A stretch of 64,000 bases of DNA from Congeria kusceri (Eukaryota > Mollusca > Bivalvia > Myida > Dreissenidae). Positions within the stretch are counted from its first letter, which is position 1; each line of letters opens with the position of its first letter. Under the pieces are notes generated by a model. It was not told the DNA's origin, searched no databases, and saw only the letters and a list, made by a program, of their open reading frames with translations. Where the stretch lies: assembly GCA_027627225.1 (NCBI GenBank), contig CM051028.1, positions 12,933,201 through 12,997,200 on the forward strand. Direction: 5' to 3'. This document shows positions 42,131 to 56,390 of this stretch, one piece after another. The position numbers and the translations under genes were made by a program.

Positions 42131-42203
42131 TATCGGGAAAATTATTTCGTTTTTCAGCCATTTCAGGATATATACTGTCTCATTCAGCGTTAAACCGTTC
42201 AGT

Positions 42204-42870
42204 CGCAATGGGGATTTGTTTTGGCAGAATGGAAGAAGGATATGACAGTGAAAATAGCTAAATTCTTGACAATAATCGATGCGCTATCTGCAGATGGTTT
42301 CAAACAAATCATGACTACATCGATGAAGATGACTATGATGATTATTGTAGTGAGTTCGAAACAAACGAACCGAAAATCGTGAAAACAAGCTTTACAAATC
42401 GAATCAAAAACAAACTGCAAGGCAGCATCAAAAAGCTGTTAAAAAACGTAAGAGAAGACAACTATCGAAACGTAGAACAAAACTACGGAATGCCAAAAGA
42501 GACCAAAAGCACACACATTATCATGAAACAAACGATGATAGTGATTGCAGTATTGAAAATGATTCCAACAATCATGATAGAAACACGTGTTTGGATTGCA
42601 AATACAATGACATCGATGATATCGTAGAAAATATGTTTCTGGAATCATACAAACGTTTTTTGGATGAAAAGTATGAAGAAACCAACCGTATCTACTTTTC
42701 CGATGATGAGTCATTCGAAAGGTACTTGGAAAACAAATATGAAAACCAATATCGCTGAAACAACTATGGTAGTGTGGAAGAAGAATCTGACCAAAATGAA
42801 ACACGTGATTTCTGTGGTAGAACATCTCAAGAATGCTTGTCAATATGCCCACTTGTGATTGCTTTGGTTA
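42204..42870 (+). pseudogene. Decayed coding remnant at the left edge of the virus-like block
   Basis: Coding-like sequence rich in Asp/Glu/Asn and Lys codons, with repeated 'gatgatgactatgat'-type stretches, broken into at least three frames by stops and shifts between 42,260 and 42,760. A short CxxC-containing stretch lies near 42,285. A Lys-rich helical part lies near 42,379-42,480. No family recognised. It probably was one gene of about 200 codons. Confidence 0.4.
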
Positions 42871-43003
42871 GTTGCTAAGCTGAATGGTTGAAACAATTGC
42901 CAGAGACTGTTTTGCAAACATGTGGTATTGTTCGCAAGTAGATATTACAAAATTGTTGATATATATCAGCTAATCGTGCACATGTTAGACTCTGTTTGCA
43001 ATC

Positions 43004-43258
43004 ATGGCCTTTCCGTCTAGAGCCTTGTATTTCAAAAACCAAGATGTTAATCAGAGACTCAAAACATTTGATGATTTACAATATGAACCTAGCGACTCGA
43101 AGGAAGACATGGCTAGCCAAGGGTTCATTTATGACATTTTGTTCGACTGCATTCAGTGCGTGTTTTGCCATACGCATATCTGGGACATTGCAAAAGGCAG
43201 CGTGAAACATAGACATCGACAACTGTGTCCTGTATGTCCTTTCGTATTTGATTTGTGA
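43004..43258 (+). CDS. BIR-domain protein (IAP-type), small, virus-like block
   Basis: 84 residues from ATG 43,004. After about 17 residues it reads 'RLKTFDDL' (BIR start: R-x-x-T-F), 'MASQGFIYD' (A-x-x-G-F-x-Y) and then the zinc site C52-x2-C55-x15-H71-x6-C78 with W60, one residue shorter than the usual x16 spacing. BIR domains bind caspases or IAP antagonists, and viral IAPs block host apoptosis. The whole protein is one BIR with a tiny tail and no RING. It is unbroken. A second, fully canonical BIR protein lies at 54,701-55,093. Confidence 0.7.
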   Translation: MAFPSRALYFKNQDVNQRLKTFDDLQYEPSDSKEDMASQGFIYDILFDCIQCVFCHTHIWDIAKGSVKHRHRQLCPVCPFVFDL

Positions 43259-43340
43259 TTTTGAATAGAACTTATCAAAACGTATATATGCGTCGTTTTT
43301 TACTTTTTATGTCATACACCAAGAAACAAAACTGATTTCG

Positions 43341-43832
43341 CTAACAATACCAGTTTGACTGAGTATCAGACATAGAAATACTATTGGTATGTCCTGTCAT
43401 TGCGCTCATGCTGTACGTTTCACAAACATGCTCAGTGCCAAGAATTGACTTGACGGCCATTTGTGTTTTCTCAACGCCGTGGAAATCTATCACACCAATG
43501 ATCCAACTGTGGTTGTGCGTCCAACTGTACCGTAGGTCGAATTTGCACAAGCAAGCTTTTGTTTGTAACACGTTCATTGTATATTTCTTGCAATCAGTGA
43601 TCAGAAATGACCACACCGAAAAAGTATTTCTCGTGTTACAGCTGTTCATGAGGGCTTGTTGAATCTTGATTTTTCCAATATCAGTTTTTCTTAAAGTTTC
43701 CTCAACAATTTCGTCAAATAGTCTCATGATCGTTTTCGTTGGTTCTAATGCAGCCTTGCGAGTAGCATACATATGGACCTTATGCAAAACATCCTCATCT
43801 TGTATTGGGTTTGACAACAAACTACTTTCCAT
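43341..43832 (-). CDS. Unknown 163-residue protein, virus-like block
   Basis: ATG 43,832, stop at 43,341. No recognisable domain. The N-terminal half is helical (KAALEPTKTIMRLFDEIVEE). The middle has several Cys (TDCKKYT, TKACLCKF). A 'SWTHNHSWIIGVIDFHGVEK' stretch looks like a beta core. Transcribed divergently from the glycoprotein gene at 43,884, with 51 bp between the two ATGs. Confidence 0.55.
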   Translation of the reverse strand: MESSLLSNPIQDEDVLHKVHMYATRKAALEPTKTIMRLFDEIVEETLRKTDIGKIKIQQALMNSCNTRNTFSVWSFLITDCKKYTMNVLQTKACLCKFDLRYSWTHNHSWIIGVIDFHGVEKTQMAVKSILGTEHVCETYSMSAMTGHTNSISMSDTQSNWYC

Positions 43833-43883
43833 GTCGATAATTTGCAGAAGAATGTTGCAAACAGTGAATGATAAAAACTATAT
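43833..43883. promoter_or_regulatory. Shared divergent promoter with a near-palindromic TATA element
   Basis: 'aactatatatgg' at 43,876-43,887 reads as TATATA on both strands. It lies 0-40 bp from the glycoprotein start and about 45 bp from the minus-strand start at 43,832. If it is the TATA box of the plus gene, transcription would begin after 43,884, which favours the second in-frame ATG (43,917). Confidence 0.4.
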
Positions 43884-45965
43884 ATGGAGTTTTTTCTACT
43901 TGTGACAAAACATTTTATGTTCATTATGCATGCTTGTGAGTACTTTTGTGCACTTTTACTCGTTCTTGTGGTGCAAACAAATGCGTTAGGCGGTATTAAT
44001 CCGAACTTTTATGATTCGCAATGTTTTACGCCATTAAATGAAAAGTCGATCGATGTTACCAATGGTTCGTTTTACATTTTGATTAACGTAACATACGATT
44101 ATATTTCACTGTACGATGATATCAAACACAATTTACACTTTTTCAATCGATGGATTAGTAACCCAGAGCTGGGTTTCGAGGCTCACGAGTTAGAAGCGAG
44201 ATGCAAATCGATTGGCTTACCTAGATGTCCAAACAAGAGAGAAGCTTATTCGAAACCAGAATACCATGTGATTAACGGTTTTAGGTCGAACGGAATGTTC
44301 TTTGTATACGAATTACCCAGTCTTGCTGTAAAAATGGCAATTGAACCGAAAACGTACTCAATGAGCCAATTTGTAAAATCAGTGTATACCGAAATTTCGG
44401 CACACGCGTGGATACCATTGTTAACGTATAACTTTTCATTGACCTATAATGGGAGTAAGGTTTGTGCGAATGGTGTGTTGGGTCAGGCTAACATCCGATT
44501 TAACGGAAAATTGTGTTCATCGTTAGGTACTTGGTGCGATAAAGATATAAGTGGACAATGGGTCTTGGGATTAAATGAAGCGTTTACGGTCATAAAAGAA
44601 GCATACCTTACGCAAAGAGTGAATGATTTGGCACTCTATAATTACGTGAAAACTGTCGAGCTCGAAAGAAACCCTTACGAATACTCGGGTTTACGAGAAA
44701 ACATTCAACAAGTGAATCGCGAAATCGCAGACATAAGAAACGTGTTACAAAATCTGGAAAGCGATGACTATTCCGACGATGAGTATTACGATGATAATTT
44801 AGAGAACAAGAAGGCAGATGAAGATGTTCCTGTTTTCGAACACCCATGGGTCCGTAAAAGGAAAACAAATGATGATTTAGAGAAAAAGAAGGCCGATGAA
44901 ACTGTTCCTGTTTTGGAGCACCCATCGGGGAAAACAAACTTTACCGTTATAGCGATTCAGAAAAATATTGACCAACGATTGAACGCTATCAACGACACAA
45001 TCATAAAGCATAAAGCTGTTTCAAACAAGAACACAGTTGCTGAAACATCGACTTATGGTCTGCAAAACTGCTACTGTCTCACATGCAATCAATCTACTAC
45101 TGTCGGTAAAATGCACAACGGTCTGTGTTATTTCATCAACTTAGATCCAACGTTCAAGGTTCTAACAGCGAAACACACTTCGCCTTTCAAAGAATACGAA
45201 CCGTTGATTATCGACGAACAGTCAGATTCGCTCAGCGCGTTACATAAACAAGTGAGTAATGAAATTATTCTGTCCCAAAAGGCCTCATCATATCAACTCA
45301 TCGTGTACAGCACCAGAGATGGCAATTCCGTGGAAGCAAAATGTAAATCGTTGTTCAATAGAAAATACCAGGTAAGCGAATGCGATAGAAAGGCACACGC
45401 TGTACTTATAGCGAAAGAAGACCATTTCAAACAAGTTCAGCCGCTACCATGGCCCGAGTTTACATATTGTCATGTTGGTGCTGTTAAAGCGAGCAGCGGC
45501 AAATGTTTTCGAATTGATGCCAACTGTTCGATTGCAAATATTGCTAGCGTTAGCGACGTAGATGACGATGTGGTTTCATATTTAGTGAGCATTACTCAAA
45601 GCACTGCGCAAAATATGACTGAGGCCAAATTTCAGATCAAAAACATAGATGATGGCCTTGCAACAAGCGATCACTTTGTTGTATATTCAAGCAATGAAGC
45701 GACAGATCGCGGACAGAAATGCACTTACGTTGATATGAGAACTAAGACTATTGCAGTGGAAAAGTGCAAAAATCGTCCTATGCTTTGCGAGGTTATATTT
45801 GCCAAAACGACTACAGATATCAAACCGGGACTGAGAAAGCTAACATTTTGGGAAACCGTAGCTGTAAGAGTTGGTGGTTTTATTTTGCTTGTTGTGGCTG
45901 CAGTTGCCTTCATACTCGCCTTGCATAGCATAGCCCGAAAGAACGAAAATGTTATAAACGTTTGA
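43884..45965 (+). CDS. Large type I membrane glycoprotein, virus-like block
   Basis: 693 codons; ATG at 43,884 or, more likely, 43,917, which places a signal peptide (ALLLVLVVQTNALG) at the N-terminus. About nine N-x-S/T sites. Many Cys. Residues about 300-350 contain a duplicated acidic/basic segment ('KKADEDVPVFEHP' and 'KKADETVPVLEHP'). From about residue 390 a Cys-rich module begins ('YGLQNCYCLTCNQSTTVGK', 'LCYFINLD') that is shared with the broken gene at 49,872-50,889. One membrane helix near the end (FILLVVAAVAFILALHSIA) with a short basic tail. Role as an envelope/surface protein is inferred. Unbroken. No family recognised. Confidence 0.65.
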   Translation: MEFFLLVTKHFMFIMHACEYFCALLLVLVVQTNALGGINPNFYDSQCFTPLNEKSIDVTNGSFYILINVTYDYISLYDDIKHNLHFFNRWISNPELGFEAHELEARCKSIGLPRCPNKREAYSKPEYHVINGFRSNGMFFVYELPSLAVKMAIEPKTYSMSQFVKSVYTEISAHAWIPLLTYNFSLTYNGSKVCANGVLGQANIRFNGKLCSSLGTWCDKDISGQWVLGLNEAFTVIKEAYLTQRVNDLALYNYVKTVELERNPYEYSGLRENIQQVNREIADIRNVLQNLESDDYSDDEYYDDNLENKKADEDVPVFEHPWVRKRKTNDDLEKKKADETVPVLEHPSGKTNFTVIAIQKNIDQRLNAINDTIIKHKAVSNKNTVAETSTYGLQNCYCLTCNQSTTVGKMHNGLCYFINLDPTFKVLTAKHTSPFKEYEPLIIDEQSDSLSALHKQVSNEIILSQKASSYQLIVYSTRDGNSVEAKCKSLFNRKYQVSECDRKAHAVLIAKEDHFKQVQPLPWPEFTYCHVGAVKASSGKCFRIDANCSIANIASVSDVDDDVVSYLVSITQSTAQNMTEAKFQIKNIDDGLATSDHFVVYSSNEATDRGQKCTYVDMRTKTIAVEKCKNRPMLCEVIFAKTTTDIKPGLRKLTFWETVAVRVGGFILLVVAAVAFILALHSIARKNENVINV

Positions 45966-46022
45966 AACTATATACCTTGATGTTTGTTTCTATTTTGTCA
46001 CATCTCACAATGACTTCTTATC

Positions 46023-46214
46023 ATGATATGCAACGCCGACACGATGGAATTTGCGGTACAAATACGCAAAGATGTTAGCGTTTCGATAAATGAGCACGAA
46101 TTGCTCGAAAGTGTCTTCGAAACAATGTTTGACGATGTGGAAGACAAGAACATTTTCGAGTTTGATTTGACGGTGGAATTTTCATGTCGATATGTTAACG
46201 TGTTCGTGGTTTGA
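46023..46214 (+). CDS. Small acidic ORF, virus-like block
   Basis: 63 residues (MICNADTMEFAVQ ... SVFETMFDDVEDK) between the glycoprotein and the GIY-YIG gene. Acidic and helical, no domain recognised. It sits in the normal gene spacing of the block, hence kept, but it may be spurious. Confidence 0.35.
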   Translation: MICNADTMEFAVQIRKDVSVSINEHELLESVFETMFDDVEDKNIFEFDLTVEFSCRYVNVFVV

Positions 46215-46346
46215 CATTTTGTTTGCAATGGAAGAACAGGGAATTGTTTTCAGCTTGCCAGCTGACCTTCGTGTCTGGTTGTTAAAAATCCTATAAACGT
46301 TATTTCAAATAAACTGTTATCACCCTTATACTTCGTTTTTGTTGTT

Positions 46347-46760
46347 ATGGAATACAAGGTTCAACCATGCAACAGCGAGCGCTGCACTTTATGTTCTCAG
46401 CTAAAGAGTGGCAATAGTTTTCAGTTCAATTGCGGGTTTGTGTACATGGTGGAAGACGGAGAGAATCTATCTTGTAAGTCGAAAGACGTTATATATGTTT
46501 TGAAGTGCAACACTTGTAGTGGCGAGTACATTGGGGAAACTGTAAACCTGAGACGACGCATTCATATGCACAACTCTCACATTCGCACGGAGCAACACTT
46601 TTGTCGAGCGACTGATCATTTGATTGAGTGTGGGAAGCACTTGTGCGACGTGAAAGAGCGCTTTACTGTGTTTCTGTTGCAGACTGTGAGAGACAAGTAT
46701 GTATGTAAAGCAAAAGAGGCGTACTACATTAGGTTGTTCAGACCAATGATGAACAAGTGA
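46347..46760 (+). CDS. Stand-alone GIY-YIG nuclease, Penelope-type
   Basis: 137 residues. The N-terminal zinc-like motif C-x4-C-x2-C (CNSERCTLC) and 'C-x-S-K-D-V-I-Y-V-L-K-C-N-T-C' lead into the GIY-YIG core: 'VIYV' and 'EYIGET', then 'LRRRIHMHNSHI' (catalytic Arg and His region), a 'DHLIECGKH' segment and the metal-binding Glu in 'KAKEAYYIRLFRP'. This order matches the endonuclease domain at the C-terminus of Penelope-like retroelements, here without any reverse transcriptase. It would nick DNA; a role in viral recombination, host-DNA attack or integration is inference. Unbroken; own spacing and start. Confidence 0.75.
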   Translation: MEYKVQPCNSERCTLCSQLKSGNSFQFNCGFVYMVEDGENLSCKSKDVIYVLKCNTCSGEYIGETVNLRRRIHMHNSHIRTEQHFCRATDHLIECGKHLCDVKERFTVFLLQTVRDKYVCKAKEAYYIRLFRPMMNK

Positions 46761-46836
46761 ACTTGTTTTCTTATATTTTTTCGTATTTATATCTGAGTAT
46801 CTGTCATTTCAAGTACACTCACTCACTCTTACTACA

Positions 46837-47444
46837 ATGGCACGGCAACAGCTTACATCCAGTTACGGTAGGAAAATGCAAAACCGAGAACGTATTCAAG
46901 AATTCACTAACACAATACTTCAGCACGGCGTAAGAAGCAATATAGTTTCTGAGGTTGAGCCTGGTGTCTTCATGTCACCAGACGATACAATGAAGTTAGA
47001 CGACCTATCTGCCAAACTGAAACAGATCGATGCTAAACTCACTCAGTATAAAAACCTGAAAGTGAGAACACAGCATCTCATCAAGGGTATCAAGAAAACA
47101 AAAAATCTGCGTGATGATGTAGTGAAAACTGTAAGCGCTAACGTCTTCAATATGATTCCCATCGATGTGCTCAACGACATACTCGATTTTTACTCGAAAG
47201 CAGTTCGGGGGAAGATAAAGACATTTTTGCTTTAATCGAAAGAATAAAATCTACTAAGGTTCAGGAGAAGCGTAACTATGCTGACATCGATGTCTCAGAT
47301 ACAGAAATGTCGGATACGCTGAACGATGATGAACAGCAAATCATGAACGCTCTGGCTGCCAAACGAAAACGTAAAACTGGGGTGAAGAAAGCTGTCAAGA
47401 AACAGAAAAAAGAAACACCTATGCTCAGTGATTTGGACCAATGA
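46837..47444 (+). pseudogene. Basic coiled-coil nuclear protein, frameshifted
   Basis: The first part (46,837-47,235) encodes 132 residues with a helical middle (LDDLSAKLKQIDAKL). The reading frame then changes at a run of five G at about 47,208-47,212. The following frame is open to the stop at 47,442 and encodes an acidic stretch and a strong nuclear-localisation-like cluster (AAKRKRKTGVKKAVKKQKK). Both parts have the same codon style, so I read them as one gene broken by a homopolymer indel (or a sequencing error). No domain recognised. Confidence 0.5.
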
Positions 47445-47555
47445 CTACGTTTTTGCAATATTGTATGATAGATGCTTGTTCTGTATGGTGTTTTTTGGTA
47501 TATGTGGTAGAAATAAATTGTATACTTGAACTGTACTCTATTTGTTGCATTATCA

Positions 47556-48138
47556 ATGGATATCGAAGAGATTTTGATTGACGAAGACGAACAGTTAGCT
47601 CAAAACACATACTTGTTTTCACCCATGTATTCTTGCCAACACAAAGAATGTTCACTATGCATTTATCAGTACATAACAGAATACGAAGAGCAAATACGCA
47701 CTTTTGAAAACAAACTTGCAAACGTCAACTCTAAACTCGGTTGTGGTATTCAAACTTGTGTTACAATGGTCCTTAATGAGTTCAAAGACGACGAACGCAT
47801 GTCGCTGTTTAGGACATTGACACCGAGCGAGATTACAAGTCATTTCGATTCTGTGTTTGGGGATCCAATGTGTGGTTACAACAGATTGAAAGCTTACAAT
47901 TTCTTCTCTATTTGACGAAAGTACAGTTAACAATTCTGCATACATCAGCTTCATATATGATACGTATAAGCATTCGAGAAACACCTCGCTTTGTCCTTAC
48001 TCGCTTTTAGGCGTATACGTTTTCTTGGTCATGATAAATACTATCGGTGGTGATGCCCAATTGAAAAAGAAGCACGACTTTTTGTGGATGTTCAACTGTC
48101 TCTGTAATCATAAGATACGATTTGGCAAATTGCGTTAA
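47556..48138 (+). pseudogene. Unknown virus-like protein, frameshifted near the middle
   Basis: ATG 47,556 (MDIEEILIDEDEQL). An acidic start, then 'SCQHKECSLCIYQYI' (Cys cluster) and a helical part, with a stop at 47,915. A second frame is open from about 47,890 to TAA 48,136-48,138 with compatible composition (AYISFIYDTYKHS, YVFLVMINTIGG). So the original gene probably spanned about 190 codons. The end overlaps the promoter of the next gene by a few bases. No family recognised. Confidence 0.45.
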
Positions 48139-48150
48139 GGCAAAAATTTA

Positions 48151-48158
48151 TATAAAAG
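48151..48158 (+). promoter_or_regulatory. TATA box of the BTB-like gene
   Basis: TATAAAAG at 48,151-48,158, 41 bp before the ATG at 48,199, directly after the end of the preceding gene. Confidence 0.6.
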
Positions 48159-48198
48159 GCACATTTTGGGAAAAAATGTCAAACCAATCGCATAAACC

Positions 48199-48804
48199 AT
48201 GTCCACTGTAAACGTTAAAGATATTCATCGTGTCACTGACACCGAAGCTACGAATCGCTTGTTCACCAAACTCAAGTATGATGTTGGCATTCAAATCACT
48301 TCGAAGCTTATTAACTCGCTTAAACAAAGCAAGGACAGGGTTGTGTTCTATGTGGGCAAAGATCAAAGGTCTTATCCAGCAGCACTAGTTAAAATGTTCA
48401 CAAACGTTAAAACAAACCATGTCAAGATTACCAACTACAGTGTTCAAGAACTGATGAACGTTTTCGGAATTCTCATGAATCTAGCTGATTATCAATGTAA
48501 CGGTCTCACACAGGACTACACTAGTCTAGTTAATATGATTGAACTCGCCGAGTACCTCGGCATGACAGAAGTGGCTATGTTTCTTAAACGTATACCACAA
48601 CTGCTTACGTTTCACAACAAAAACGCGTATGATAACGAACTGCTTAGAAGAGAAAATGAGTCAAAAGAGAATCTACAACCTCAGTCCATCAACGAACCTA
48701 GCGAAAACGATGGTAAACGTGCAAGATCTAGGAAACGAAGCTTTACAAAGGTGTTCAGTAGAAGTCTGAGCCGTAAGCGCAGAGATGAAAATGTTATGTC
48801 ATGA
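48199..48804 (+). CDS. BTB/POZ-like protein with a basic C-terminal tail
   Basis: 201 residues. Residues about 30-135 follow a BTB-like course: 'KDRVVFYVGKDQRSYPAALV' (strand-strand-helix), 'TNHVKITNYSVQELMNVFGI' (helix before the usual 'YiYtg' region) and 'LVNMIELAEYLGMTEVAMFL' (the A-x-x-L-x-m-x-x-l helix that closes a BTB fold). The last 60 residues are Ser/Arg-rich (KRARSRKRSFTKVFSRSL), suggesting nuclear targeting. BTB proteins of DNA viruses redirect cullin ligases; that role is inference. The fold call is tentative; start supported by the TATA box. Confidence 0.5.
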   Translation: MSTVNVKDIHRVTDTEATNRLFTKLKYDVGIQITSKLINSLKQSKDRVVFYVGKDQRSYPAALVKMFTNVKTNHVKITNYSVQELMNVFGILMNLADYQCNGLTQDYTSLVNMIELAEYLGMTEVAMFLKRIPQLLTFHNKNAYDNELLRRENESKENLQPQSINEPSENDGKRARSRKRSFTKVFSRSLSRKRRDENVMS

Positions 48805-48937
48805 TTGTTGTATGTTATTGAATGTTCGAATAAACTTGATCAAACTGTAAATTACTGTGTTTGTTTTTTACTAGGTTACGATACAAAAACCCAACACATC
48901 AATACATTTTCATATATGTTTTATTGCTACAAACAGG

Positions 48938-49126
48938 TTATTGATCTACAATATCTGTTATGTCAATGTCAAATTTTACTGGTGGGCGATAGCAGCAGCC
49001 ATCCTCTCGAAATGCTACAATGATTTCTTCTACCGCTTCCTTGCACTCGTTCCGTATCTGTCTCGTTGATAACCACCAGTGAAGTTCTTGCAGATAGAAT
49101 AACGATATGAATGCCGTGATGATCAT
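48938..49126 (-). CDS. Small membrane-like protein overlapping its upstream neighbour
   Basis: 62 residues from ATG 49,126. The N-terminus (MIITAFISLFYLQEL) could be a signal or membrane segment. The rest is acidic with a Cys pair (GCCYRPP). Its ATG overlaps the stop of the preceding small ORF in the ATGA arrangement (49,126-49,123). Confidence 0.45.
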   Translation of the reverse strand: MIITAFISLFYLQELHWWLSTRQIRNECKEAVEEIIVAFREDGCCYRPPVKFDIDITDIVDQ

Positions 49127-49245
49127 GACTTCTTCTTCTTCTTATTGTCCACAGGACGTTTTAAACGGTCCCAAATTGGATCTGGTTTTCTTTCTTCGAG
49201 TATCGATTTGGTTAGTAATATGACGAGAAAGAGATTCACAAACAT
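49123..49245 (-). CDS. 40-residue ORF with an N-terminal hydrophobic segment
   Basis: ATG 49,245: MFVNLFLVILLTKSILEE, then a basic tail ending in KKKKKS and the stop at 49,123-49,125. A TATA-like element (CGTATATAAG, 49,301-49,310 on the minus strand) lies about 56 bp upstream. Too short for similarity. Kept because of promoter spacing and the ATGA coupling to the next ORF. Confidence 0.45.
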   Translation of the reverse strand: MFVNLFLVILLTKSILEERKPDPIWDRLKRPVDNKKKKKS

Positions 49246-49300
49246 GTGCAAACGTTTGAGTGGTCAGCGCAGATATGAGTGAGTGAAGCTGAACACGAAG

Positions 49301-49310
49301 CTTATATACG
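49301..49310 (-). promoter_or_regulatory. TATA box for the two small minus-strand ORFs
   Basis: CGTATATAAG on the minus strand, about 56 bp upstream of the ATG at 49,245. Confidence 0.45.
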
Positions 49311-49399
49311 CCAGTTTTATAACTAAAGCAATATAGTTAGTTTTCTGTTATAGCCAACTAGAAAGTGAAAAACTCATTTGGTTTGTTTTGTCTTTTTAT

Positions 49400-49822
49400 T
49401 CAACTATGCATACAATAATCAACAAGTGAATTCCAATGACCAGATTGTTTTGCAACCCAATCAGAAAACCTATACATTTGAAACATATCTTGAACCTTCA
49501 CCAAATGATAGTAGCTTTCTGCATTGTATTTCGATAGTTCGCGTACAATTGCAGATAACATGACAAACACAGTCAAAAATGCATTCCAACTCAAACCATA
49601 TTTCAGTTTTTGCATCAGCAATTCAGAAAAATACTCGACATCAAACATAGCCATCTCTAACTCATATCTTGTAAGCACATGCTGTATTACAGTTCTGTCT
49701 ACATGCATTGTCACACATTCAACAATGTCACAAAGTGTTTCAGTCGTATCATCAAACTGCCTTTCTTGCAAGTAGTTGGCTACCATCGCAGCTATAAATT
49801 CGCAGCTGAACATTGTTCGCAT
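49400..49822 (-). CDS. Bcl-2-like protein, virus-like block
   Basis: About 140 residues from ATG 49,822. It is predicted all-helical. 'KYGLSWNAFLTVFVMLSAIV' lies where Bcl-2 proteins have BH1 (usual n-W-G-R-v-v-a-l-f), with Asn in place of the usual Gly after Trp. 'DWVAKQSGHWNSLVDYC' lies about 30 residues later and matches BH2 (W-i-x-x-n-G-G-W-x-x-f-v). Helices before BH1 ('TLCDIVECVTMHV', 'ELEMAMFDVEYFSELL') fit alpha2-alpha4; a BH3 motif is not obvious and there is no C-terminal membrane anchor. Length suits a viral Bcl-2 homologue. Blocking of mitochondrial apoptosis is inferred. Unbroken. The BH1/BH2 spacing is the main support; a structure prediction would settle it. Confidence 0.6.
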   Translation of the reverse strand: MRTMFSCEFIAAMVANYLQERQFDDTTETLCDIVECVTMHVDRTVIQHVLTRYELEMAMFDVEYFSELLMQKLKYGLSWNAFLTVFVMLSAIVRELSKYNAESYYHLVKVQDMFQMYRFSDWVAKQSGHWNSLVDYCMHS

Positions 49823-49871
49823 AATGTACAAACTAACTGAAAACAGGTATGATGTTGAATATTATACTAAC

Positions 49872-50889
49872 TTAAGCGCTCTCTGGTGGAACACGGTTTT
49901 GTACACGACGATTATGAAATCCTTGTAGAGCAAACACAATAACTATAACAATAACCAAAGAAACAATCACACACGCAAACGCAGCAAACACTAGCCAAAC
50001 GCTGTTGGGTCGAGATTCATCCAAACTAGGTACACTGGGCTGCTTCTTATCGGGTTGTTGAATGATTTGACAGAGGGTTTGTTTTGTTGTACAATTCTGG
50101 TAGGATATCGCTTTTACAGCCACATCGATGTACAAGCAACTTCTATTCTCGTTAAATGACACTCGCGAAAACACCAAGGCGTAGTAGTTCAAGTGAAGCG
50201 TTTCGTTTAGATCGCCAATTGTGAACATCAAGTCTCTAGACAACACATCGACTGAAGTGTCTTGAGTTCTACTTATAAGATAGTCAAATGCGTTAATAAA
50301 ATCGGCTTCTGTTTCTAGCGTCGCTGGAGAACATTGGCGATGTTATAGATGCAGCTGCGTTCTTATGAAATGCACATTCCCTGTACGAAGGTGTTTCAAA
50401 TGGTGGTAGTGTAGCAAACTCTCCTTCAGTAGCTTGTAACAACGCTACAATAGTTGAGTCGCATGAAATGAGCATATATTTTCGCTTGAACAAATGAACG
50501 CATTTAGCTTCATTTTGATCAAAGAACAGAGCCATTTTGATAGAACGTTCAACGTTTGTCAAGACCAGTTCATTGCTGACTTGATTGAAAATTGTTTGTA
50601 AATGAGCGTCTCCGTCTCCAAAAATGACCAAATCGTACTCGTTATAGTCAGTGCTGTTGTCGCTTTCACCAACCTTTACTGGCGATGAATATGTTTTACT
50701 GACTACAAATTGCTGTTCCGTACTGAGAAAGTAGCAAGCGCCATCGTATATTTTACCAATGGTTTTACTTGGGTCGCAGTTATTACAGTAACAATTTTGT
50801 AGACCGTACGAAGAAACCATTTGAACCCTTGAGTCAGCGCTAGCAACTATGAACAGACATACAATGATAAACAACCGCATGCTTGCCAT
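49872..50889 (-). pseudogene. Type I membrane glycoprotein, paralogue of the 43.9-kb gene, frameshifted
   Basis: ATG 50,889 opens a signal peptide (MASMRLFIIVCLFIVASA), then the same Cys-rich module as in the 43.9-kb protein ('YGLQNCYCNNCDPSKTIGK', 'ACYFLSTE'). The frame ends at 50,293 after a shift at about 50,310-50,330. The next frame (50,246-49,872) continues with matching content ('NRSCLYIDVAVKAISYQNC', 'KQTLCQI') and a membrane helix (VWLVFAAFACVIVSLVIVIV) with a short basic tail. The intact relative has the same module order, so this is one broken gene. Confidence 0.6.
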
Positions 50890-50924
50890 GAAAAGAATCC
50901 AGATACACTCATTTTTATATGTCT

Positions 50925-51655
50925 CTAACAGTAATTTTCGTTACGTCGCTCTTTGATCACTTTTGTCACAAATGCTACCAAACCTAGTACTATAGCAAAA
51001 AATGCGAGTATGCCAAACACAGCTTCTGTAACAACAACGACCGAGACTTTTTCATCATCCTCAGCATTGACATTTGTGCTATTAGATCCATGTGTAGAGT
51101 TAGTTTCGAGAGTAGTGTCATTTATTGCATTGTTTGCCAATGTTGTGTTATCAAGGTCATGTGGCGAAACGTTTTCATCGTTTGCTAATGTTGTGCTCTC
51201 AGGGTCATTTGGCGAAATGTGATCGCTGTCATTAGTATGCGTACCATCGGCACTGCGCTTTTTGAGGTGGATCAAAACCTCATCTGGTACTATTAATCGC
51301 ATATGCTGAGTAGTGTTTAGCTTCATGCATATGTTTTCAGTAAGATATAGGAACAGTTTGCCTTTGGTGCGAAAACAAAAACGATTCCCATAATTTTGAA
51401 TGGTCAAATAATTGTCACTCACGCCCAGTGACTTTATTGTCACCATTCTAATTGCCTCAAGATCATCATATTGAGTACGATACGTTTTCTCGGGAATATT
51501 TGCAATTTTGTTGATTTTGCCTAACGTGTCATCGAAAGATACAATGGTAAATGCGCCATTGGATATACCAAGGTCGCGTTTGGCGACTTGTCAAAGCAGT
51601 TATCATTACAGCTACACAGAGAAACAAACAAAGCTAGTAGTGTGAAACGCAACAT
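50925..51655 (-). pseudogene. Third membrane glycoprotein, Ser/Thr/Asn-rich stalk, frameshifted after its signal peptide
   Basis: ATG 51,655 starts a signal peptide (MLRFTLLALFVSLCSC) in one frame. After a shift at about 51,570-51,600 the next frame runs on to 50,925. That part has a short ectodomain, then a low-complexity stalk with repeated 'SPNDPESTTLANDENVSPHD'-like units and several N-x-T/S sites, and a membrane helix (VFGILAFFAIVLGLVAFV) with a basic tail. Mucin-like stalks of this kind occur in viral surface proteins. No family recognised. Confidence 0.5.
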
Positions 51656-51718
51656 TACTGGTTTTTATTCAGCAAAACACATTGTGTACGTATATAACAA
51701 ATTTCATTGCAAAACTAT

Positions 51719-53047
51719 CTACAATGCAAAAGTGTCAGGAATGTACAAAATAAGACCGTTGGTCAACAACTCCTTCTGTACACAAAATGTTCGAAAGTGA
51801 GGTGGAACGTAAATGTTGGGTATGCACGTACGAACCGCTTGAGAGAGTAAGTCTTCTTGTCCATCGTTTGCCGACTCTGTTATAAAGTACACTTTACACG
51901 GGTTTTCTGGTAAGACGTCGCTTGTTTGATCCTCCTGTACTGGTTCTGGGCTGGTCGTTTCAACAATTTCTTCTTTCACGACTCGCAGATCGGGCATGCT
52001 GATAATCTCTTTCTGCTCTGGAAACAAGTCCGAAACTGCCTTCTGAACATGACCAAGTATTTCTGTCCACTGTTTGTCTTCTGTCTGACCAAGCATCTTT
52101 TTTGACAGACGAGATTGATCTTTTGAGTTTTCGGCAAATTTGCGCTTGCGATTAGGAATGGCATTGCTGAGTCTTCCTTTTCCACCGTCGATGATCTCAG
52201 TTTTCACTTCAAGACTGTTAATGTACAGAGGATGCATTGTGAACAAAAACTCTAACGCTTGACACAAGTTCGAATTCGGATATCCATATTTTGGTTTCAT
52301 TGCAGCAAACCCCAGCTCCTGCTCTGCCAGTTCGATGCTCGGTCTCAACGCTTCATATATTCCACCACAGCTTTTCACAATCTTGAGACCGATGGTGAGC
52401 TCTTTCTGAGTGCTGATCAGCTTAAAATGTGAACTCGGCAGTACTCCTTTTCTCACCAATATTTCTATAAGGTCGCTTTCTGAACAACCTAGCAATGTCA
52501 TGACTGCTCGAAAGTAGCTGTTCAGTTTCAATCGTATCTGCGTTCTTTCTAGAGACAGGTTAGTAGACTTCACGGTGTAACATTTGCTGTATTCTTCGAT
52601 ACCGTGCAACTCAAGCACTGGTATAATGCATATCGGCAGTTTGTAGTTGTCGGTTGGAGACGACTGCATGTATCTGCCCTTCTTAATGCGATCATGTAGA
52701 GTTGTTAATTGTTCAGGTATCAGCGTTTTCAATATTTTGAAGTAGCACATGTCATTCTTGTCGTCTGGTGAAAACATCAGATCGACAATTCGTTCAAACG
52801 CAGCCAGCGTTGGTTCATCGAGAAACACATGGTCTAGCGTTGGCTTGTAGTTCAAGTCGTCGTATGGACTGTTCGTTATAGCTATGAAACGCAGTCCCTC
52901 TGCATCAGCGAAAGGACATGTCACGCTAAACATGTACTTCTTCTGGTGACCGCTGGCATTGAAGTTTCTTTTCTCACGAATGAATTCCTCGCATAGTATT
53001 CTGAGATACATGTTGTCGCTTCGGTTGTCAGATCGCAAATGAGACAA
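51719..53047 (-). CDS. Unknown 442-residue protein, virus-like block
   Basis: Longest intact minus-strand gene of the block. The N-terminal two thirds look globular (FSVTCPFADAEGLRFIAIT ... ). A basic stretch 'IPNRKRKFAENSK' near residue 300 may be a nuclear signal. The C-terminal part has an acidic Pro/Glu-rich linker and then 'CIPNIYVPPHF'. No domain recognised. The TATA element (53,066-53,076) is so close to the first ATG (53,047) that the in-frame ATG at 53,011 is the likelier start. The first 12 codons plus promoter are repeated in inverted orientation before the spliced gene at 53,878. Confidence 0.55.
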   Translation of the reverse strand: MSHLRSDNRSDNMYLRILCEEFIREKRNFNASGHQKKYMFSVTCPFADAEGLRFIAITNSPYDDLNYKPTLDHVFLDEPTLAAFERIVDLMFSPDDKNDMCYFKILKTLIPEQLTTLHDRIKKGRYMQSSPTDNYKLPICIIPVLELHGIEEYSKCYTVKSTNLSLERTQIRLKLNSYFRAVMTLLGCSESDLIEILVRKGVLPSSHFKLISTQKELTIGLKIVKSCGGIYEALRPSIELAEQELGFAAMKPKYGYPNSNLCQALEFLFTMHPLYINSLEVKTEIIDGGKGRLSNAIPNRKRKFAENSKDQSRLSKKMLGQTEDKQWTEILGHVQKAVSDLFPEQKEIISMPDLRVVKEEIVETTSPEPVQEDQTSDVLPENPCKVYFITESANDGQEDLLSQAVRTCIPNIYVPPHFRTFCVQKELLTNGLILYIPDTFAL

Positions 53048-53137
53048 AGTCTGTTGGTCGCACCGCTATTTATACCAGTCGTCGCATTATTAAGATTGCC
53101 TTATATGCCAACATACTGTTGACTGTCTAGTACAGAG
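53048..53137. promoter_or_regulatory. Divergent promoter between two unknown genes
   Basis: 90 bp between the ATGs at 53,047 (minus) and 53,138 (plus). GGTATAAATAG on the minus strand at 53,066-53,076 is a clear TATA box. 'cttatatgcc' at 53,100-53,109 may serve the plus gene. Confidence 0.5.
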
Positions 53138-53872
53138 ATGGCTCGATGCAGAGACAGCAAGAGCAAATGTGAACTGCACTCACTCATTAACAATAAACAT
53201 TTACCAAACAAGCCTGAGTTGTTAGCTGCCTATCTGAATAGAAATTATGACTTTAGCGCCTCATGCTATATCGCTATAGATTTCACACAACATGACATTG
53301 AACAGGTTTTCATTCACTGCTCGAGATCTGAGTACATTCAGTATGTCAAACTAAGGTTTACAAACTCAAAAAGCGATGGTGTTGACTTTCTACTATGCGA
53401 GCAAACTAATTACGAAGACATTTTTGGTAACGAGGTACACCAGTGCCATATTTACTTTTCCAATGCATGCACCAAAGATATGGCAGCTACAAGTTACCAC
53501 TTGATATACGCTTTTGCGTTAACCGGAGTACTGAAATTCTCAAAGCATACAGTAGAAAAACTAGCATCGTGTTTGGTAAAACGATATGGTCAAACGCTAG
53601 TACCCAAGTGTGTTACTGAGTTTTGGAACAAAAAACTTGAATACTTTCGACTGAAATGCATTCGCGACAAAACAGACCTACTCTCACAACAAGATGACTC
53701 AATCACGCTTCGGAGAGAAATTGAGCTCTTGGAGCAATCAAAGTACAAATTCGTGAGTGTAGAATACCACTCTGTCAGCAAAACTGTCAAGATTCTGTTT
53801 ACCTACTCGTGTGACAATAGCTTCGGTTTACTGTCTCTCACCCAGCGACTGGGTATAAAAAGGGCTGAGTGA
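53138..53872 (+). CDS. Unknown 244-residue protein, virus-like block
   Basis: ATG 53,138 (MARCRDSKSKCELH). No family recognised. A beta-rich N-terminal half with 'ASCYIAIDFTQHDIEQVFIH', several Cys/His, and a helical C-terminal half ('ITLRREIELLEQSKYKFV'). The last 20 codons contain the TATA box and leader of the next gene, a compact viral-style overlap. Unbroken. Confidence 0.5.
   Translation: MARCRDSKSKCELHSLINNKHLPNKPELLAAYLNRNYDFSASCYIAIDFTQHDIEQVFIHCSRSEYIQYVKLRFTNSKSDGVDFLLCEQTNYEDIFGNEVHQCHIYFSNACTKDMAATSYHLIYAFALTGVLKFSKHTVEKLASCLVKRYGQTLVPKCVTEFWNKKLEYFRLKCIRDKTDLLSQQDDSITLRREIELLEQSKYKFVSVEYHSVSKTVKILFTYSCDNSFGLLSLTQRLGIKRAE
53854..53860 (+). promoter_or_regulatory. TATA box inside the end of the preceding gene
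   Basis: TATAAAA at 53,854-53,860 in the context 'gcgactgggtataaaaaggg'. The same context occurs inverted before the 53,047 minus gene ('gcgacgactggtataaatag'). The first ATG (53,878) is too close, which favours 53,917. Confidence 0.55.
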
Positions 53873-53877
53873 CTGTC

Positions 53878-54296
53878 ATGTCATGTCATTTGCAATCTGA
53901 CAACCGAAGCAACAACATGTCTAACTACAGCTCTAGCTCATTCAAAGTGCCAGTTACAGAGGACTGGGACGCTGAAATCGCACAGACGCAGACTCAGCAA
54001 AGTAAGTGTTATGCATTTAGTGGCGCTTATTTCACAGGTTGTTGTAGCATTTGACTGTTATTTACCATGATATTGATTTGTTGAAATAACATTGATTTGC
54101 GTTTTGTGTTTCAGAACAAACAAGCATCAAGTCAGTTTCCACACCATCTGAGGACTGGGACGCTGAAATCGCTGTGGCGAAGAGGCCAGCTTTCAACATC
54201 AGCCTGCCGAAATGTACACAGAGGCAGCTTAACATACTGCACAGATGTTGGACGTGTCGATGTGTGCCAGTCAATTGCACATGTAGAAAACGCTAA
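53878..54296 (+). CDS. Spliced small gene with a repeated EDWDAEIA motif
   Basis: Exon 1 (53,878 or 53,917 to 54,001) ends at GTAAGTG. Exon 2 (54,115-54,296) opens after TGTTTCAG. The 113-nt intron keeps the frame. Each exon contains one 'EDWDAEIA' motif, so the exon pair looks like an internal duplication. The C-terminus is Cys-rich and basic (HRCWTCRCVPVNC, CRKR). The stop TAA at 54,294-54,296 is followed at once by an AATAAA. It is the only clear intron in the virus-like block. No family recognised. Confidence 0.55.
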
Positions 54297-54485
54297 ATAA
54301 ATCTGTTGAACTGTTAACAGTTGTTTGTTGTGTATGATGGCAAAAAAATGTTATATAGGTTGTAAAATGAAAAATCATGTGGTGCGCACCACAAAAACAC
54401 AATGCTAGCAGTCGAACTAAAAGATCTGAGCTTTTTTCGCCACATGCTACACTTAAATCTTGAATAGTGGAATAGCGCTGTTGAC

Positions 54486-54758
54486 ATGTATCTGAAAGAC
54501 ATATACCCCGACATTGAGTTTTCATTTTCGCAAAGAGATCAATGCTGGAAGAAAACAAATTCAGACGTGGTGTACTATGTTGATGTTGAACTAATTTTGA
54601 CAAGCCCGAAATATGGTTTCTGCTGGACAGACCAAAATCAGATTAGGCGAATTCATACGGTTAACAGCGTTTTGTTGCAATCGAAAGCAGAGGGCAAAAC
54701 ATGTATCGTTTGGTCAAGAGCATTTTTGACAGAAAAATGTATTTGGTGGCTAAAATGA
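54486..54758 (+). CDS. Unknown 90-residue protein overlapping the BIR gene
   Basis: ATG 54,486 (MYLKDIYPDIEFSFSQ). A beta-rich, Trp-rich protein, no domain recognised. Its end (to 54,758) overlaps the first 58 nt of the BIR ORF in another frame. It could be an independent small gene or the first part of a longer gene disrupted before the BIR region. Confidence 0.4.
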   Translation: MYLKDIYPDIEFSFSQRDQCWKKTNSDVVYYVDVELILTSPKYGFCWTDQNQIRRIHTVNSVLLQSKAEGKTCIVWSRAFLTEKCIWWLK

Positions 54759-55093
54759 TAGCTTGTTTGTTAAACAAATATTTCTCAAAACACATGGATG
54801 AAACTGACGCTATGTGCACATTTCAGTCACACAGATACATGGAAACCTATATAGAGAGACTTAAAACATTTGAGTACTGGTCTCCACAAATCATTCCAAA
54901 CAAATATCAACTTGCTTCGTGTGGTCTGTATTACTTGGGTCAACACGATCGCTGCAAATGTTTTCGATGCGGTGTTGAGCTATACAACTGGAAATCATCC
55001 GACGACCCATGGCTAGAGCACCACAAGCACTCGCCAAACTGCCAGTTTTTGCGTATGGTGGGACCAGGGACAAGATTGTTACTGAACAAATGA
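54701..55093 (+). CDS. BIR-domain protein (IAP-type), canonical zinc site
   Basis: 130 residues; start at 54,701 or at the later in-frame ATG near 54,794 (MDETDAMC). BIR at about residues 52-118: 'RLKTFEYW', 'LASCGLYYLGQHDRCKCFRC' with C87-x2-C90, W97, 'SSDDPWLEHHKHSPNC' giving H107 and C114 (C-x2-C-x16-H-x6-C, the standard pattern). No RING or CARD. An AATAAA follows at about 55,126. Viral IAPs of this single-BIR form occur in several invertebrate DNA viruses; caspase or antagonist binding is inferred. Unbroken. Confidence 0.8.
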   Translation: MYRLVKSIFDRKMYLVAKMIACLLNKYFSKHMDETDAMCTFQSHRYMETYIERLKTFEYWSPQIIPNKYQLASCGLYYLGQHDRCKCFRCGVELYNWKSSDDPWLEHHKHSPNCQFLRMVGPGTRLLLNK

Positions 55094-55394
55094 GTTGTAT
55101 AATCTGTACGATTGAACGTGTTTCAATAAAAACGTTTGAAAAGAAATTTTGATTGTGTTCGGTTATTCAGCTATATTTTACTTGGTTCCCTATTATACGA
55201 TAAGCAAAACTATGAATGTGTGCACTAACTGTTAGCTAACGAAAATGTTATAGACCGACACTACAATTCTAAATAAATACGAACAACACATAAGTGTAAG
55301 GTTTTAAACGGATTTATTTTGATACCAGCATGTTTTCAAAAATCTGGTTATAGCTACAGTTCATTGTCAATCAAATTCATTGTCATTTCACATG

Positions 55395-55745
55395 CTACAA
55401 CTGCATATGTCTTGCACCACGGTGTAACGTATAGCCTTGAATTTCCCCACACCATCTGCATCGGTCGTCTATCTTCGTACACTTCACACAGAACAGTCCT
55501 TCACATTTGCGACAGAAATTCACTGCGCCTGAGATGTCTTGGCATATTTCACACTGCAAAATCAATGTAGTGTCAACTACTGTTGGTAGAATTGTCCGCA
55601 TGGTTTCCAACCATCTGTGGCAGGCGACTCTGTCGTTTCCATTTGTATGTTGGTCGGTACTGTTCTGTCTCTCCAACCATGCTCGAAAACTGCCACTTTC
55701 TTCAACCTTTGCCATCCATTGTTTGCATGCGTTTTTGTCAGTCAT
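55395..55745 (-). CDS. RING-like all-cysteine zinc protein
   Basis: 116 residues from ATG 55,745 (MTDKNACKQWM). The C-terminal half has eight Cys in four CxxC pairs: C65/C68, C78/C81, C86/C89, C96/C99 (spacings 9, 4, 6). That is the cross-brace order of a RING finger with Cys where His is usual. The N-terminal half has two similar 'AC-x2-W-(M/L)' helices. RING proteins act as E3 ubiquitin ligases; a binuclear FYVE/PHD-like fold is the alternative. TATAAAAG lies about 56 bp upstream. Unbroken. It faces the BIR gene tail to tail. Confidence 0.6.
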   Translation of the reverse strand: MTDKNACKQWMAKVEESGSFRAWLERQNSTDQHTNGNDRVACHRWLETMRTILPTVVDTTLILQCEICQDISGAVNFCRKCEGLFCVKCTKIDDRCRWCGEIQGYTLHRGARHMQL

Positions 55746-55800
55746 GTTGATTGTGTTATTTCGAATAGCGAAATGAATCAAGCATACACAAACTTGCCCT

Positions 55801-55808
55801 TTTATAGG
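55801..55808 (-). promoter_or_regulatory. TATA box of the RING-like gene
   Basis: CTATAAAAGGG on the minus strand (about 55,798-55,808), 55-60 bp before the ATG at 55,745. It rules out the longer reading that starts with a non-ATG codon at 55,781. Confidence 0.6.
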
Positions 55809-56073
55809 CGAGCTACAGCTAGACTACGTACTCAACTTGTTAGCTCACCACATCTGTATACAGTATACTATGGCAATGAAACCCTACAATTCAACATTTC
55901 TACTCATATTAGACTTGATTTAACTTACACTCACATAACCCAAAAATCAAACTAACAACAAATCAACCATTTCAATGCGATTCGTGTTTTCTGCGCAGTA
56001 AACGACAAGGCCTGGTGTTACACTGGTAATCGTTCGGACCGCACTTTGCACTCACTTTGTTTTTGTTGATCAA

Positions 56074-56390
56074 AATGGAGTCCAGCAGTAGTGTTTGTTT
56101 GCGTGGTTATTTTGATTTGTATTCGCTTCAATTTTGTGATTTTTGTGCGGATTTCGGTGTGATTCAATGAAGGATATATTCATCTACGTGGAAAGTACTA
56201 CAAATTTGTGTTTTTTCTTGCGTTTGGTGAAAAATCAACTTGTCGTTGTCCAGCCTGTGTGATTCATCCGAAATAAATGGAACAGTTTGTCTCTGTCAAA
56301 ATGCAGTTTGGAGGTTTTTTTGTTGAATTGTGTGTGCATATCGAGGGTTGCACGCAAGACTGTCGTAACTGCCATTTTTACAGAAATTGA
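56074..56390 (+). other. Short Cys-rich ORFs at the right edge of the virus-like block
   Basis: An ORF from ATG 56,074 (31 codons, 'QFCDFCADFG') is followed in another frame by a stretch ending 'STCRCPACVIHPK' with AATAAA at about 56,270. A separate 29-codon ORF at 56,301 ends 'CTQDCRNCHFY'. They may be the last decayed genes of the block, or chance. After about 56,400 the sequence returns to AT-rich genomic style. Confidence 0.25.

What the first reader, a model, noticed from the sequence alone, without database searches (positions are those of the whole stretch)
42199..56290. Compact virus-like gene block inside an intron-rich, transposon-laden host region
The gene style changes abruptly: short ORFs on both strands, tiny gaps, TATA boxes near starts, an ATGA overlap, AATAAA right after stops, only one intron. 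Contents (two BIR, RING-like, Bcl-2-like, BTB-like, GIY-YIG, glycoproteins) are the accessory set of a large animal DNA virus. Flanks are ordinary repeats and a pogo element on the left and a TIR element on the right. The source could be an unknown relative of malacoherpesviruses or another invertebrate dsDNA virus.
Basis: partly seen in the sequence, partly recalled or inferred. Interest (0 to 1): 0.95.

Follow-up and report, generated by a model that had tools for sequence, protein, structure and literature searches.

The report
Fossil end-piece of an endogenous herpesvirus
The odd gene block is the broken end of an old herpesvirus genome that was inserted into the host's DNA, and the same host genome also carries about 25 younger, near-identical and largely intact relatives of that virus scattered over its chromosomes.

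Summary
The block is real (41988-56341): ORFs cover 70% of it, 24% and 11% of the flanks, 3% of shuffles. It is one end of an endogenous herpesvirus. The host assembly holds 25 copies of a herpes-type terminase, 23 with the full 702-aa frame, and a B-family DNA polymerase near all 25 (21 with a 1283-aa frame). Relatives (79%) of the block's 430-aa gene flank 21 of 25 terminases on both sides, 115-135 kb apart, and 4 on one side: the block's genes lie in a long terminal direct repeat (DR). All 16 block ORFs tested have relatives in one such DR. DR ~38 kb and total ~158 kb are inferred. The window copy starts at the exact viral terminus inside a pogo element, is cut after 14.4 kb, has broken genes, and belongs to an older subfamily (23 copies, none near a terminase). 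No terminal inverted repeats; no target-site duplication at the one locus with both ends read, unlike Teratorn. BTB unsupported, Bcl-2 weak. Viral family, capsid gene and host species remain untested.

The parts
41988..56341 (+). Truncated copy of the terminal direct repeat (DR) of an endogenous herpesvirus, 14.4 of about 38 kb (DR length inferred)
   Evidence: blastn against other copies: C246 w41987-56341, C4 provirus DRs from w41973/41987
41988..42010 (+). Left genome terminus C[TC]ACAGCCACTTTTTT; host pogo sequence ends at 41987
   Evidence: same start in C246 and in both DRs of the C4 provirus and in 15 of 20 further copies examined
42208..42758 (+). First gene, broken: in-frame stop (read by eye) and a change of reading frame
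   Evidence: sequence, codon-model scan
43004..43258 (+). Single-BIR protein, 84 aa
   Evidence: Pfam PF00653 E 8.8e-10; relative 70-71% in the C4 DRs; dN/dS 0.20
43341..43832 (-). Unknown protein, 163 aa
   Evidence: relatives 65-97%; dN/dS 0.26
43884..45965 (+). Glycoprotein GP1, 693 aa: signal-like N-terminus, Cys-rich domains, C-terminal membrane span (topology by eye)
   Evidence: paralog of GP2; short motif shared with a 543-aa glycoprotein-like protein encoded near the terminase (E 0.001); dN/dS 0.22
46347..46760 (+). GIY-YIG nuclease, 137 aa
   Evidence: PF01541 E 1.7e-9; 90-91% identical in the C4 DRs, dN/dS 0.06
46837..47235 (+). Unknown protein, shortened: 132 aa against 199-203 aa in the four relatives examined; frame changes afterwards, coding signal runs on towards 47444
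47556..47915 (+). Cys-rich protein ('RING-like'), shortened: 119 aa against 193-195 aa in the four relatives examined
   Evidence: no model over its cut-off
48199..48804 (+). Conserved 201-aa protein with basic tail; 'BTB' not supported
   Evidence: dN/dS 0.06
49400..49822 (-). Bcl-2-like protein, 140 aa
   Evidence: Pfam E 0.0067, relative E 6.2e-4, PDB Mcl-1 E 0.0044; profile of 5 copies only E 0.095
49872..50246 (-). C-terminal piece of glycoprotein GP2, in another frame than the N-terminal piece
   Evidence: one 346-aa frame in both C4 DRs
50293..50889 (-). N-terminal piece of glycoprotein GP2
   Evidence: 33% to GP1, E 7e-28
50925..51446 (-). Membrane-type protein, 173 aa; 259 aa in C246, 173 in the C5:12.14 copy, 137 in the C4 DRs
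51719..53011 (-). 430-aa protein (p430), used as marker gene of the DR
   Evidence: 98 of 98 scored copies match (167 candidates) in the assembly; dN/dS 0.19
53008..53042 (-). 35-nt leader/start region shared (94%) with 53886-53920 of the spliced gene
53138..53872 (+). Unknown protein, 244 aa
53917..54296 (+). Small gene with the intron (54002-54114, GT..AG), exons carrying the repeats TEDWDAEI and SEDWDAEI
   Evidence: exons read by eye; not among the 16 ORFs compared
54486..54758 (+). Unknown protein, 90 aa, overlapping the next gene by ATGA
54755..55093 (+). Single-BIR protein
   Evidence: PF00653 E 1.9e-21; PDB BIR domains to E 6.9e-31; dN/dS 0.06
55395..55745 (-). Cys-rich zinc-binding-type protein (B-box-like, below cut-off)
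40460..41987 (+). Host pogo/Tc5-type transposon, 5' TIR at 40460, transposase cut off at the viral junction, no 3' TIR in the window at up to 3 mismatches
   Evidence: PF03221 E 5e-16, PF03184 E 5e-5; TIR search
56342..64000 (+). DNA right of the block (inverted-repeat element 56741-57208 with tRNA-Gln 57003-57077; Mutator-like transposase)
   Evidence: no match to any fetched locus

Best explanation
The block is the left-terminal piece of an endogenous herpesvirus genome of the form DR-U-DR. The virus packs linear genomes with fixed termini. Such linear genomes were inserted end to end into germline chromosomes, most likely by end joining at chance breaks (inferred). A first wave (subfamily A, which includes the window) is old: genes broken, no terminase nearby, here cut down to 14.4 kb. 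A second wave (subfamily B, about 21% different in p430) is young: 25 terminase-bearing copies, 21 with the DR marker on both sides, mostly with open terminase and polymerase frames, plus DR copies without a terminase nearby, as expected if recombination between the two DRs removes the unique part (solo DRs, as in HHV-6). The DR genes are host-interaction genes kept in two doses per genome: two single-BIR proteins and a Bcl-2-like protein to block apoptosis, two related envelope-type glycoproteins, a GIY-YIG nuclease and small Cys-rich regulators (functions inferred from domains). Shown: linkage of the block's gene families to herpes terminase and polymerase, DR geometry, exact left terminus, two age classes, constraint on the genes. 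Inferred: end joining, solo-DR formation, DR length, protein functions.
For: Herpes terminase: 25 matches among 27 candidates, 0 of 14 control genomes positive (the controls that names are prokaryotes, so this is a mild control); 23 of 25 with the full 702-aa frame, 99-100% identical proteins. It also matches PF02500 (E 6.7e-8) and the solved tripartite terminase subunit 3 (E 1.4e-13). The four loci compared as DNA differ by 2-8 substitutions in 4077 bases. DNA polymerase B near all 25, about 10 kb away, 21 with a 1283-aa frame. p430 relatives on both sides of 21 of 25 terminases, on one side of 4, on the opposite strand at 25 of 25, spacing 115-135 kb. All 16 block ORFs tested (two are pieces of GP2) have relatives in the DR of the C4 provirus. 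dN/dS between the window and that DR is 0.06-0.26 for 11 of 11 genes measured. Exact left end in the window, in C246, in both C4 DRs and in 15 of 20 other copies. Tandem DR junction on C8 and outer right end on C12 agree. Broken genes in the window.
Against: The DR length of 38 kb rests on C8 spacing, the C8 junction and one outer end (C12); the two places predicted for the C5 copy did not show the terminus (L081, L083). The two DRs of the C4 provirus differ by 1.7-2.8%, more than expected for one fresh insertion, while 801 bases of the C5 copy's DRs are identical. No subfamily A copy lies within 100 kb of one of the 25 terminases, so A's full form was not seen; one decayed terminase (C1) might belong to it. 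5 of 20 copies gave no left terminus where expected. dS is near saturation in several genes, so dN/dS is rough. About 60 of the ~82 kb of unique region were not read, so a transposase or integrase there is not excluded. Capsid gene not tested. The block is cut inside the DR, so solo DR and truncated provirus cannot be told apart here.
Confidence: 0.85

Rival explanations
1. A Teratorn-like giant transposon: the herpesvirus genome moves by a captured transposase.
For: 25 dispersed, very similar copies, not far from Teratorn's ~40 (passages of PMC10175614). A pogo element adjoins the window block.
Against: The termini at the C8 junction are not inverted repeats (best match 7 nt) and no target-site duplication is seen at C12. 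The pogo 5' TIR has no partner in the window, and C246 has the same viral terminus with another flank, so pogo is target, not vehicle. No transposase among the 12 ORFs scanned from ~20 kb around the terminase.
Confidence: 0.15
2. Copies spread mainly by host segmental or tandem duplication rather than by repeated insertion.
For: Window and C5:12.13 Mb share flank and block; C234/C288 copies are 99.95-100% identical over 20 kb; C8 carries tandem DRs.
Against: The 15 left junctions found among 20 copies have different 40-base flanks (compared by eye) cut at the same viral base.
Confidence: 0.06
3. Another large DNA virus (adintovirus, nudivirus, nimavirus, NCLDV) donated the block.
For: BIR, Bcl-2-like and GIY-YIG genes occur in several virus groups (general knowledge). 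GIY-YIG had 0 mentions in one malacoherpesvirus paper.
Against: Relatives of the block genes sit at fixed distance from herpes-type terminase.
Confidence: 0.02
4. A cluster of host genes, or a domesticated viral island kept for host use.
For: Low dN/dS between copies.
Against: At least four genes in the window are split or shorter than their relatives. The selection signal is between A and B lineages, i.e. most likely in the virus before insertion.
Confidence: 0.04
5. Young B copies are reads of an active infection mis-assembled into chromosomes.
For: Near-identity and open frames; no reads were available to check.
Against: Different flanks at the same viral base, many on contigs of 47-115 Mb; DR copies without terminase and tandem DRs; the window copy is decayed and duplicated with its flank.
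Confidence: 0.04

Closest known systems
Inherited chromosomally integrated HHV-6 and its solo-DR form (PMC7444522, passages read)
   Same: DR-U-DR genome in germline chromosomes; copies consisting of the DR only, explained there by recombination between DRs.
   Different: HHV-6 integrates into telomeres through telomere repeats. Here interior sites on many contigs, dozens of copies, and no telomere repeats at the junctions read (by eye).
Teratorn of medaka (PMC5601938 and PMC10175614, passages read)
   Same: Multi-copy endogenous herpesvirus with intact genes and two subtypes; Teratorn also carries an Mcl1-like gene.
   Different: Teratorn is a piggyBac fusion with TIRs and TSDs. Here direct repeats, no TIR, no TSD at the one locus with both ends read, no transposase found in the part examined.
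Endogenous malacoherpesviruses of lancelets, BelcheriHV-1 and AaHV-1 (PMC12373286, PMC2994540, passages read)
   Same: Integrated herpesvirus (149,856 bp for BelcheriHV-1), repeat-rich flanks, compact genes. BIR is called common to all Malacoherpesviridae in PMC5552708, though the same paper calls it absent in AbHV-1-TAI (passages).
   Different: [quoted passage not shown] no DR scars in the passages read. Kinship to this virus not tested.
Acipenserid herpesvirus 3 in lake sturgeon (PMC12031113, passages read)
   Same: Germline-integrated herpesvirus with terminal repeat regions; ten host junctions; apparent purifying selection.
   Different: Telomere-like terminal repeats; fish alloherpesvirus; no chromosome-level map.

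Membership tests
Herpesvirales | Herpes-type terminase ATPase/nuclease | tested here: met
   PF02499 E to 8e-14, PF02500 E 6.7e-8, PDB terminase subunit 3 E 1.4e-13; found in the B proviruses, not in the window block itself
Herpesvirales | B-family DNA polymerase in the same genome | tested here: met
   near 25 of 25 terminases, 21 with a 1283-aa frame; which polymerase subfamily was not tested
Herpesvirales | HK97-type major capsid protein and capsid protease | not tested
   PF03122 search unanswered three times
Herpesvirales | Linear genome of 124-295 kb with defined termini | tested here: met
   left terminus in many copies, right terminus in two places; ~158 kb is inferred from spacing, and the C5 prediction failed; size range from a passage
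Malacoherpesviridae | Terminase/polymerase cluster with OsHV-1 and HaHV-1 in a tree | not testable with these tools
   no reference proteins within reach; protein database switched off
Malacoherpesviridae | BIR-domain genes | tested here: met
   two BIR genes; called common to the family in PMC5552708, with an exception named there; also found in other viruses
Teratorn-like elements | Terminal inverted repeats | tested here: not met
   longest match 7 nt between the 100-nt termini at the C8 junction
Teratorn-like elements | Target-site duplication | tested here: inconclusive
   none at C12, but that is the only locus with both ends read
Teratorn-like elements | Encoded transposase | tested here: inconclusive
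   none among 12 ORFs from ~20 kb of the unique part; most of it unread
HHV-6-type integration | Terminal direct repeats | tested here: met
   p430 relatives in the same orientation on both sides of 21 of 25 terminases; DR alignments
HHV-6-type integration | Telomeric target through telomere repeats | tested here: not met
   interior positions; no telomere repeats by eye in the 40-base flanks of the 15 left junctions found
HHV-6-type integration | Solo-DR scars | tested here: inconclusive
   24 of 70 B p430 copies have no terminase at 45-75 kb, but some lie on short contigs or in tandem, and no solo candidate was read at both ends

The most novel reading that the evidence does not exclude
A herpesvirus lineage that behaves like a giant retroelement without an integrase: full ~158-kb linear genomes insert by their packaging termini at many interior chromosome sites, in at least two waves, and recombination between the long direct repeats leaves solo DRs, the DNA-virus counterpart of solo LTRs. 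The window block would be a fossil of the first wave.
Probability: 0.4. Interest if true: 0.93.

Novelty: new variant of a known kind. Interest (0 to 1): 0.86.

Why it matters
Endogenous herpesviruses are rare. The two routes described in the papers seen are telomere targeting (HHV-6) and fusion with a transposon (Teratorn). Here many copies, young and old, lie in one genome at interior sites with exact viral termini and so far no sign of either route. That makes the questions of how a herpesvirus gets into the germline without a transposase, how often its unique part is lost again, and how its accessory genes evolve directly testable by comparing copies. It also gives a set of likely host-interaction genes (two BIR, one Bcl-2-like, glycoproteins) with evidence of constraint.

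Tried and rejected
Viral-contig scans with six block proteins and the terminase found no relative; they reach close relatives only. AlphaFold2 models of p430 (pLDDT 33) and the 201-aa protein (pLDDT 44) from single sequences were useless, and no fold search was made. BTB was looked for by Pfam, PDB and a three-sequence profile: nothing. Pogo as vehicle was rejected: no 3' TIR in the window and another flank in C246. My first reading that the DR is 14.8 kb was wrong: the outer right end of that C4 copy is itself cut, and other copies run on. The C6 spacing of 19.2 kb as DR length was tested and failed. PHROGs gave nothing useful beyond homing-endonuclease matches of the GIY-YIG protein. The host species was not identified.


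Full report
OBSERVATION. The block differs sharply from its surroundings. ATG-ORFs of at least 100 aa cover 70% of 42199-55800 against 24% and 11% of the flanks; 50 shuffles of the block average 3%, the highest 10.5%. GC is 0.392 against 0.339/0.333 and CpG observed/expected 1.01 against 0.62/0.69. A codon-model scan gives a good frame (score >8) in 27% of block windows, 7% on the left and 3% on the right; the model was trained on block ORFs, so this leans towards the block. Pfam finds two BIR domains (E 8.8e-10, 1.9e-21) and a GIY-YIG domain (E 1.7e-9). Bcl-2 is weak in the window (E 0.0067; PDB Mcl-1 E 0.0044), better in a relative (E 6.2e-4), weaker again with a five-sequence profile (E 0.095); I hold it as likely. 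BTB and RING are not supported at any curated cut-off.

SURROUNDINGS. Left: pogo/Tc5-type transposase with a 5' TIR at 40460 and no 3' TIR in the window, and further left two nearly identical copies, about 9.3 kb apart, of a tnp2-type element. Right: an inverted-repeat element with a tRNA-Gln and a Mutator-like transposase.

THE KEY TEST. The window lies at C5:12933201-12997200 of a 1.549-Gb assembly in 1071 contigs; C5 is 94 Mb long. A search with the herpesvirus terminase family gave 25 matches among 27 candidates and none in 14 control genomes. With the 702-aa protein as query, 23 of the 25 have the full frame, two (C2, C3) are split or shortened, and a 26th, decayed one lies on C1. The protein matches PF02500 and the solved tripartite terminase subunit 3. 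The four loci compared over 4077 bases differ by 2-8 substitutions. A B-family DNA polymerase lies about 10 kb from each of the 25; 21 have a 1283-aa frame, four a shorter one, one of these with stops. The same family also hits other places (C1, C4, C6, C11) that look like exons of host polymerases or, on C11, an older relic.

THE LINK TO THE BLOCK. The 430-aa gene of the block has 98 scored copies (of 167 candidates; 98 match). I sorted them into 23 of the block's own kind (A, 88-100% identity), 70 at about 79% (B) and 5 others (75-81%). B copies stand on both sides of 21 of the 25 terminases, on one side of 4, on the opposite strand at 25 of 25, 115-135 kb apart. 24 B copies and all 23 A copies have none of these terminases nearby. 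So the gene lies in a direct repeat at both ends of the provirus. All 16 block ORFs tested (two are pieces of GP2; the first gene and the spliced gene were not in that test) have relatives in the DR of the C4 provirus (44-91% identity), among them longer frames for GP2, the 132-aa and the 119-aa protein. The first gene's DNA aligns there too (78%). dN/dS between window and that DR is 0.06-0.26 in 11 of 11 genes measured, with dS near saturation in several: these genes evolved under constraint, most likely before insertion. The 543-aa glycoprotein-like protein near the terminase shares a short Cys motif (29 residues) with the block's glycoproteins (E 4e-6 and 0.001 as single comparisons).

ENDS. 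The viral left terminus C[TC]ACAGCCACTTTTTT is the same in the window (41988), in C246 and in both DRs of the C4 provirus, and in 15 of 20 further copies (8 of 10 with a terminase, 7 of 10 without). The other 5 gave no left end where expected. By eye the 15 flanks are different, and 13 of 15 have an A just before the terminus. For the right end I first took 14.8 kb; that was wrong, since other copies continue. On C8 three copies of the gene follow each other at 38.2 and 37.9 kb, and the DR-DR junction predicted from that lies within 10 bases of the expected place. The outer right end of the full C12 copy shows the same last bases and then other DNA (98.2% over 168 bases). At C5 neither predicted place showed it. 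So: DR ~38 kb, unique part ~82 kb, whole ~158 kb, inferred. Left start and right end are not inverted repeats, and C12, the only locus with both ends read, has no target-site duplication. A G-rich/C-rich stretch (around 42075-42110) just inside the left terminus recalls herpesvirus pac signals; that is from memory, not tested.

THE WINDOW COPY. It runs from the exact left terminus to 56341, where C246 and C3 go on: 14.4 of ~38 kb. The first gene has an in-frame stop (by eye) and a frame change. Glycoprotein GP2 is in two frames. Two more proteins are shorter than in the four copies compared (132 against 199-203, 119 against 193-195 aa); a third has 173 aa against 259 in C246 but 173 and 137 elsewhere. 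The locus with its pogo flank recurs at C5:12.13 Mb: 1.36% substitutions in the flank, 1.27 and 0.55% in two block stretches. Hence insertion came before that duplication, and the junction is unlikely to be an assembly slip.

WORKING. Shown: a herpesvirus genome with terminal direct repeats was inserted many times, in two age classes, with an exact left terminus at interior sites. Inferred: linear, packaged-type genomes are joined into breaks; recombination between DRs removes the unique part; old copies erode. Against a simple picture: the two DRs of the C4 provirus differ by 1.7-2.8%, while 801 bases of the C5 copy's DRs are identical. Likely roles of the DR genes: block of apoptosis (BIR, Bcl-2-like), envelope glycoproteins, a nuclease, small Cys-rich regulators.

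KNOWN THINGS. Papers were read as passages only: HHV-6 solo-DR (PMC7444522), Teratorn (PMC5601938; PMC10175614), lancelet malacoherpesviruses (PMC12373286; PMC2994540), malacoherpesvirus domains (PMC5552708), sturgeon AciHV-3 (PMC12031113). Answered searches of the open library listed no paper whose title or abstract start reports a multi-copy endogenous herpesvirus of a mollusc or other invertebrate; subscription papers are not covered, and one paper on invertebrate herpesviruses that would matter (10.3389/fmars.2023.1159754) is not held.

VERDICT. The fragment is ordinary decay; what it belongs to is not: a many-copy endogenous herpesvirus with long terminal direct repeats and so far no sign of telomere or transposon targeting.

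Noticed in passing
53008-53042 and 53886-53920: Two divergent genes share a 35-nt leader and start region (94%), suggesting a duplicated promoter/leader within the viral repeat.
   Followed up: partly
53959-53981 and 54150-54172: The exons on both sides of the intron repeat 23 identical bases coding EDWDAEI, an acidic-Trp motif; role unknown.
   Followed up: no
44791-44928: 60-nt unit duplicated (87%) in the linker of GP1.
   Followed up: no
49127-49245 (-) and neighbour: By eye, two further small membrane-type ORFs on the minus strand that overlap by ATGA.
   Followed up: no
46347-46760: The GIY-YIG protein has the Cys-rich lead-in typical (from memory) of Penelope-like retroelements, a possible origin; AciHV-3 insertions were also reported beside Penelope-like elements (passage).
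   Followed up: no
L007:739-1422, L007:1918-3957: Near the proviral terminase: a RING protein (E 2e-11) and an OTU-protease-like protein (E 3e-7).
   Followed up: partly
L071, L072, L074, L076-L079 (C5, C7, C16, C12, C17): A stretch of the DR about 4.4 kb past the marker point varies strongly between copies that are otherwise close (82-100%), as if shuffled or fast evolving.
   Followed up: partly
L019-L024 (C234, C288): Subfamily A copies on two smaller contigs 99.95-100% identical over 20 kb and 124-155 kb apart: large recent duplications, alternative haplotypes or A proviruses without terminase.
   Followed up: partly
373-20950: Left part of the window holds two nearly identical copies of a tnp2-type transposon region.
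   Followed up: no
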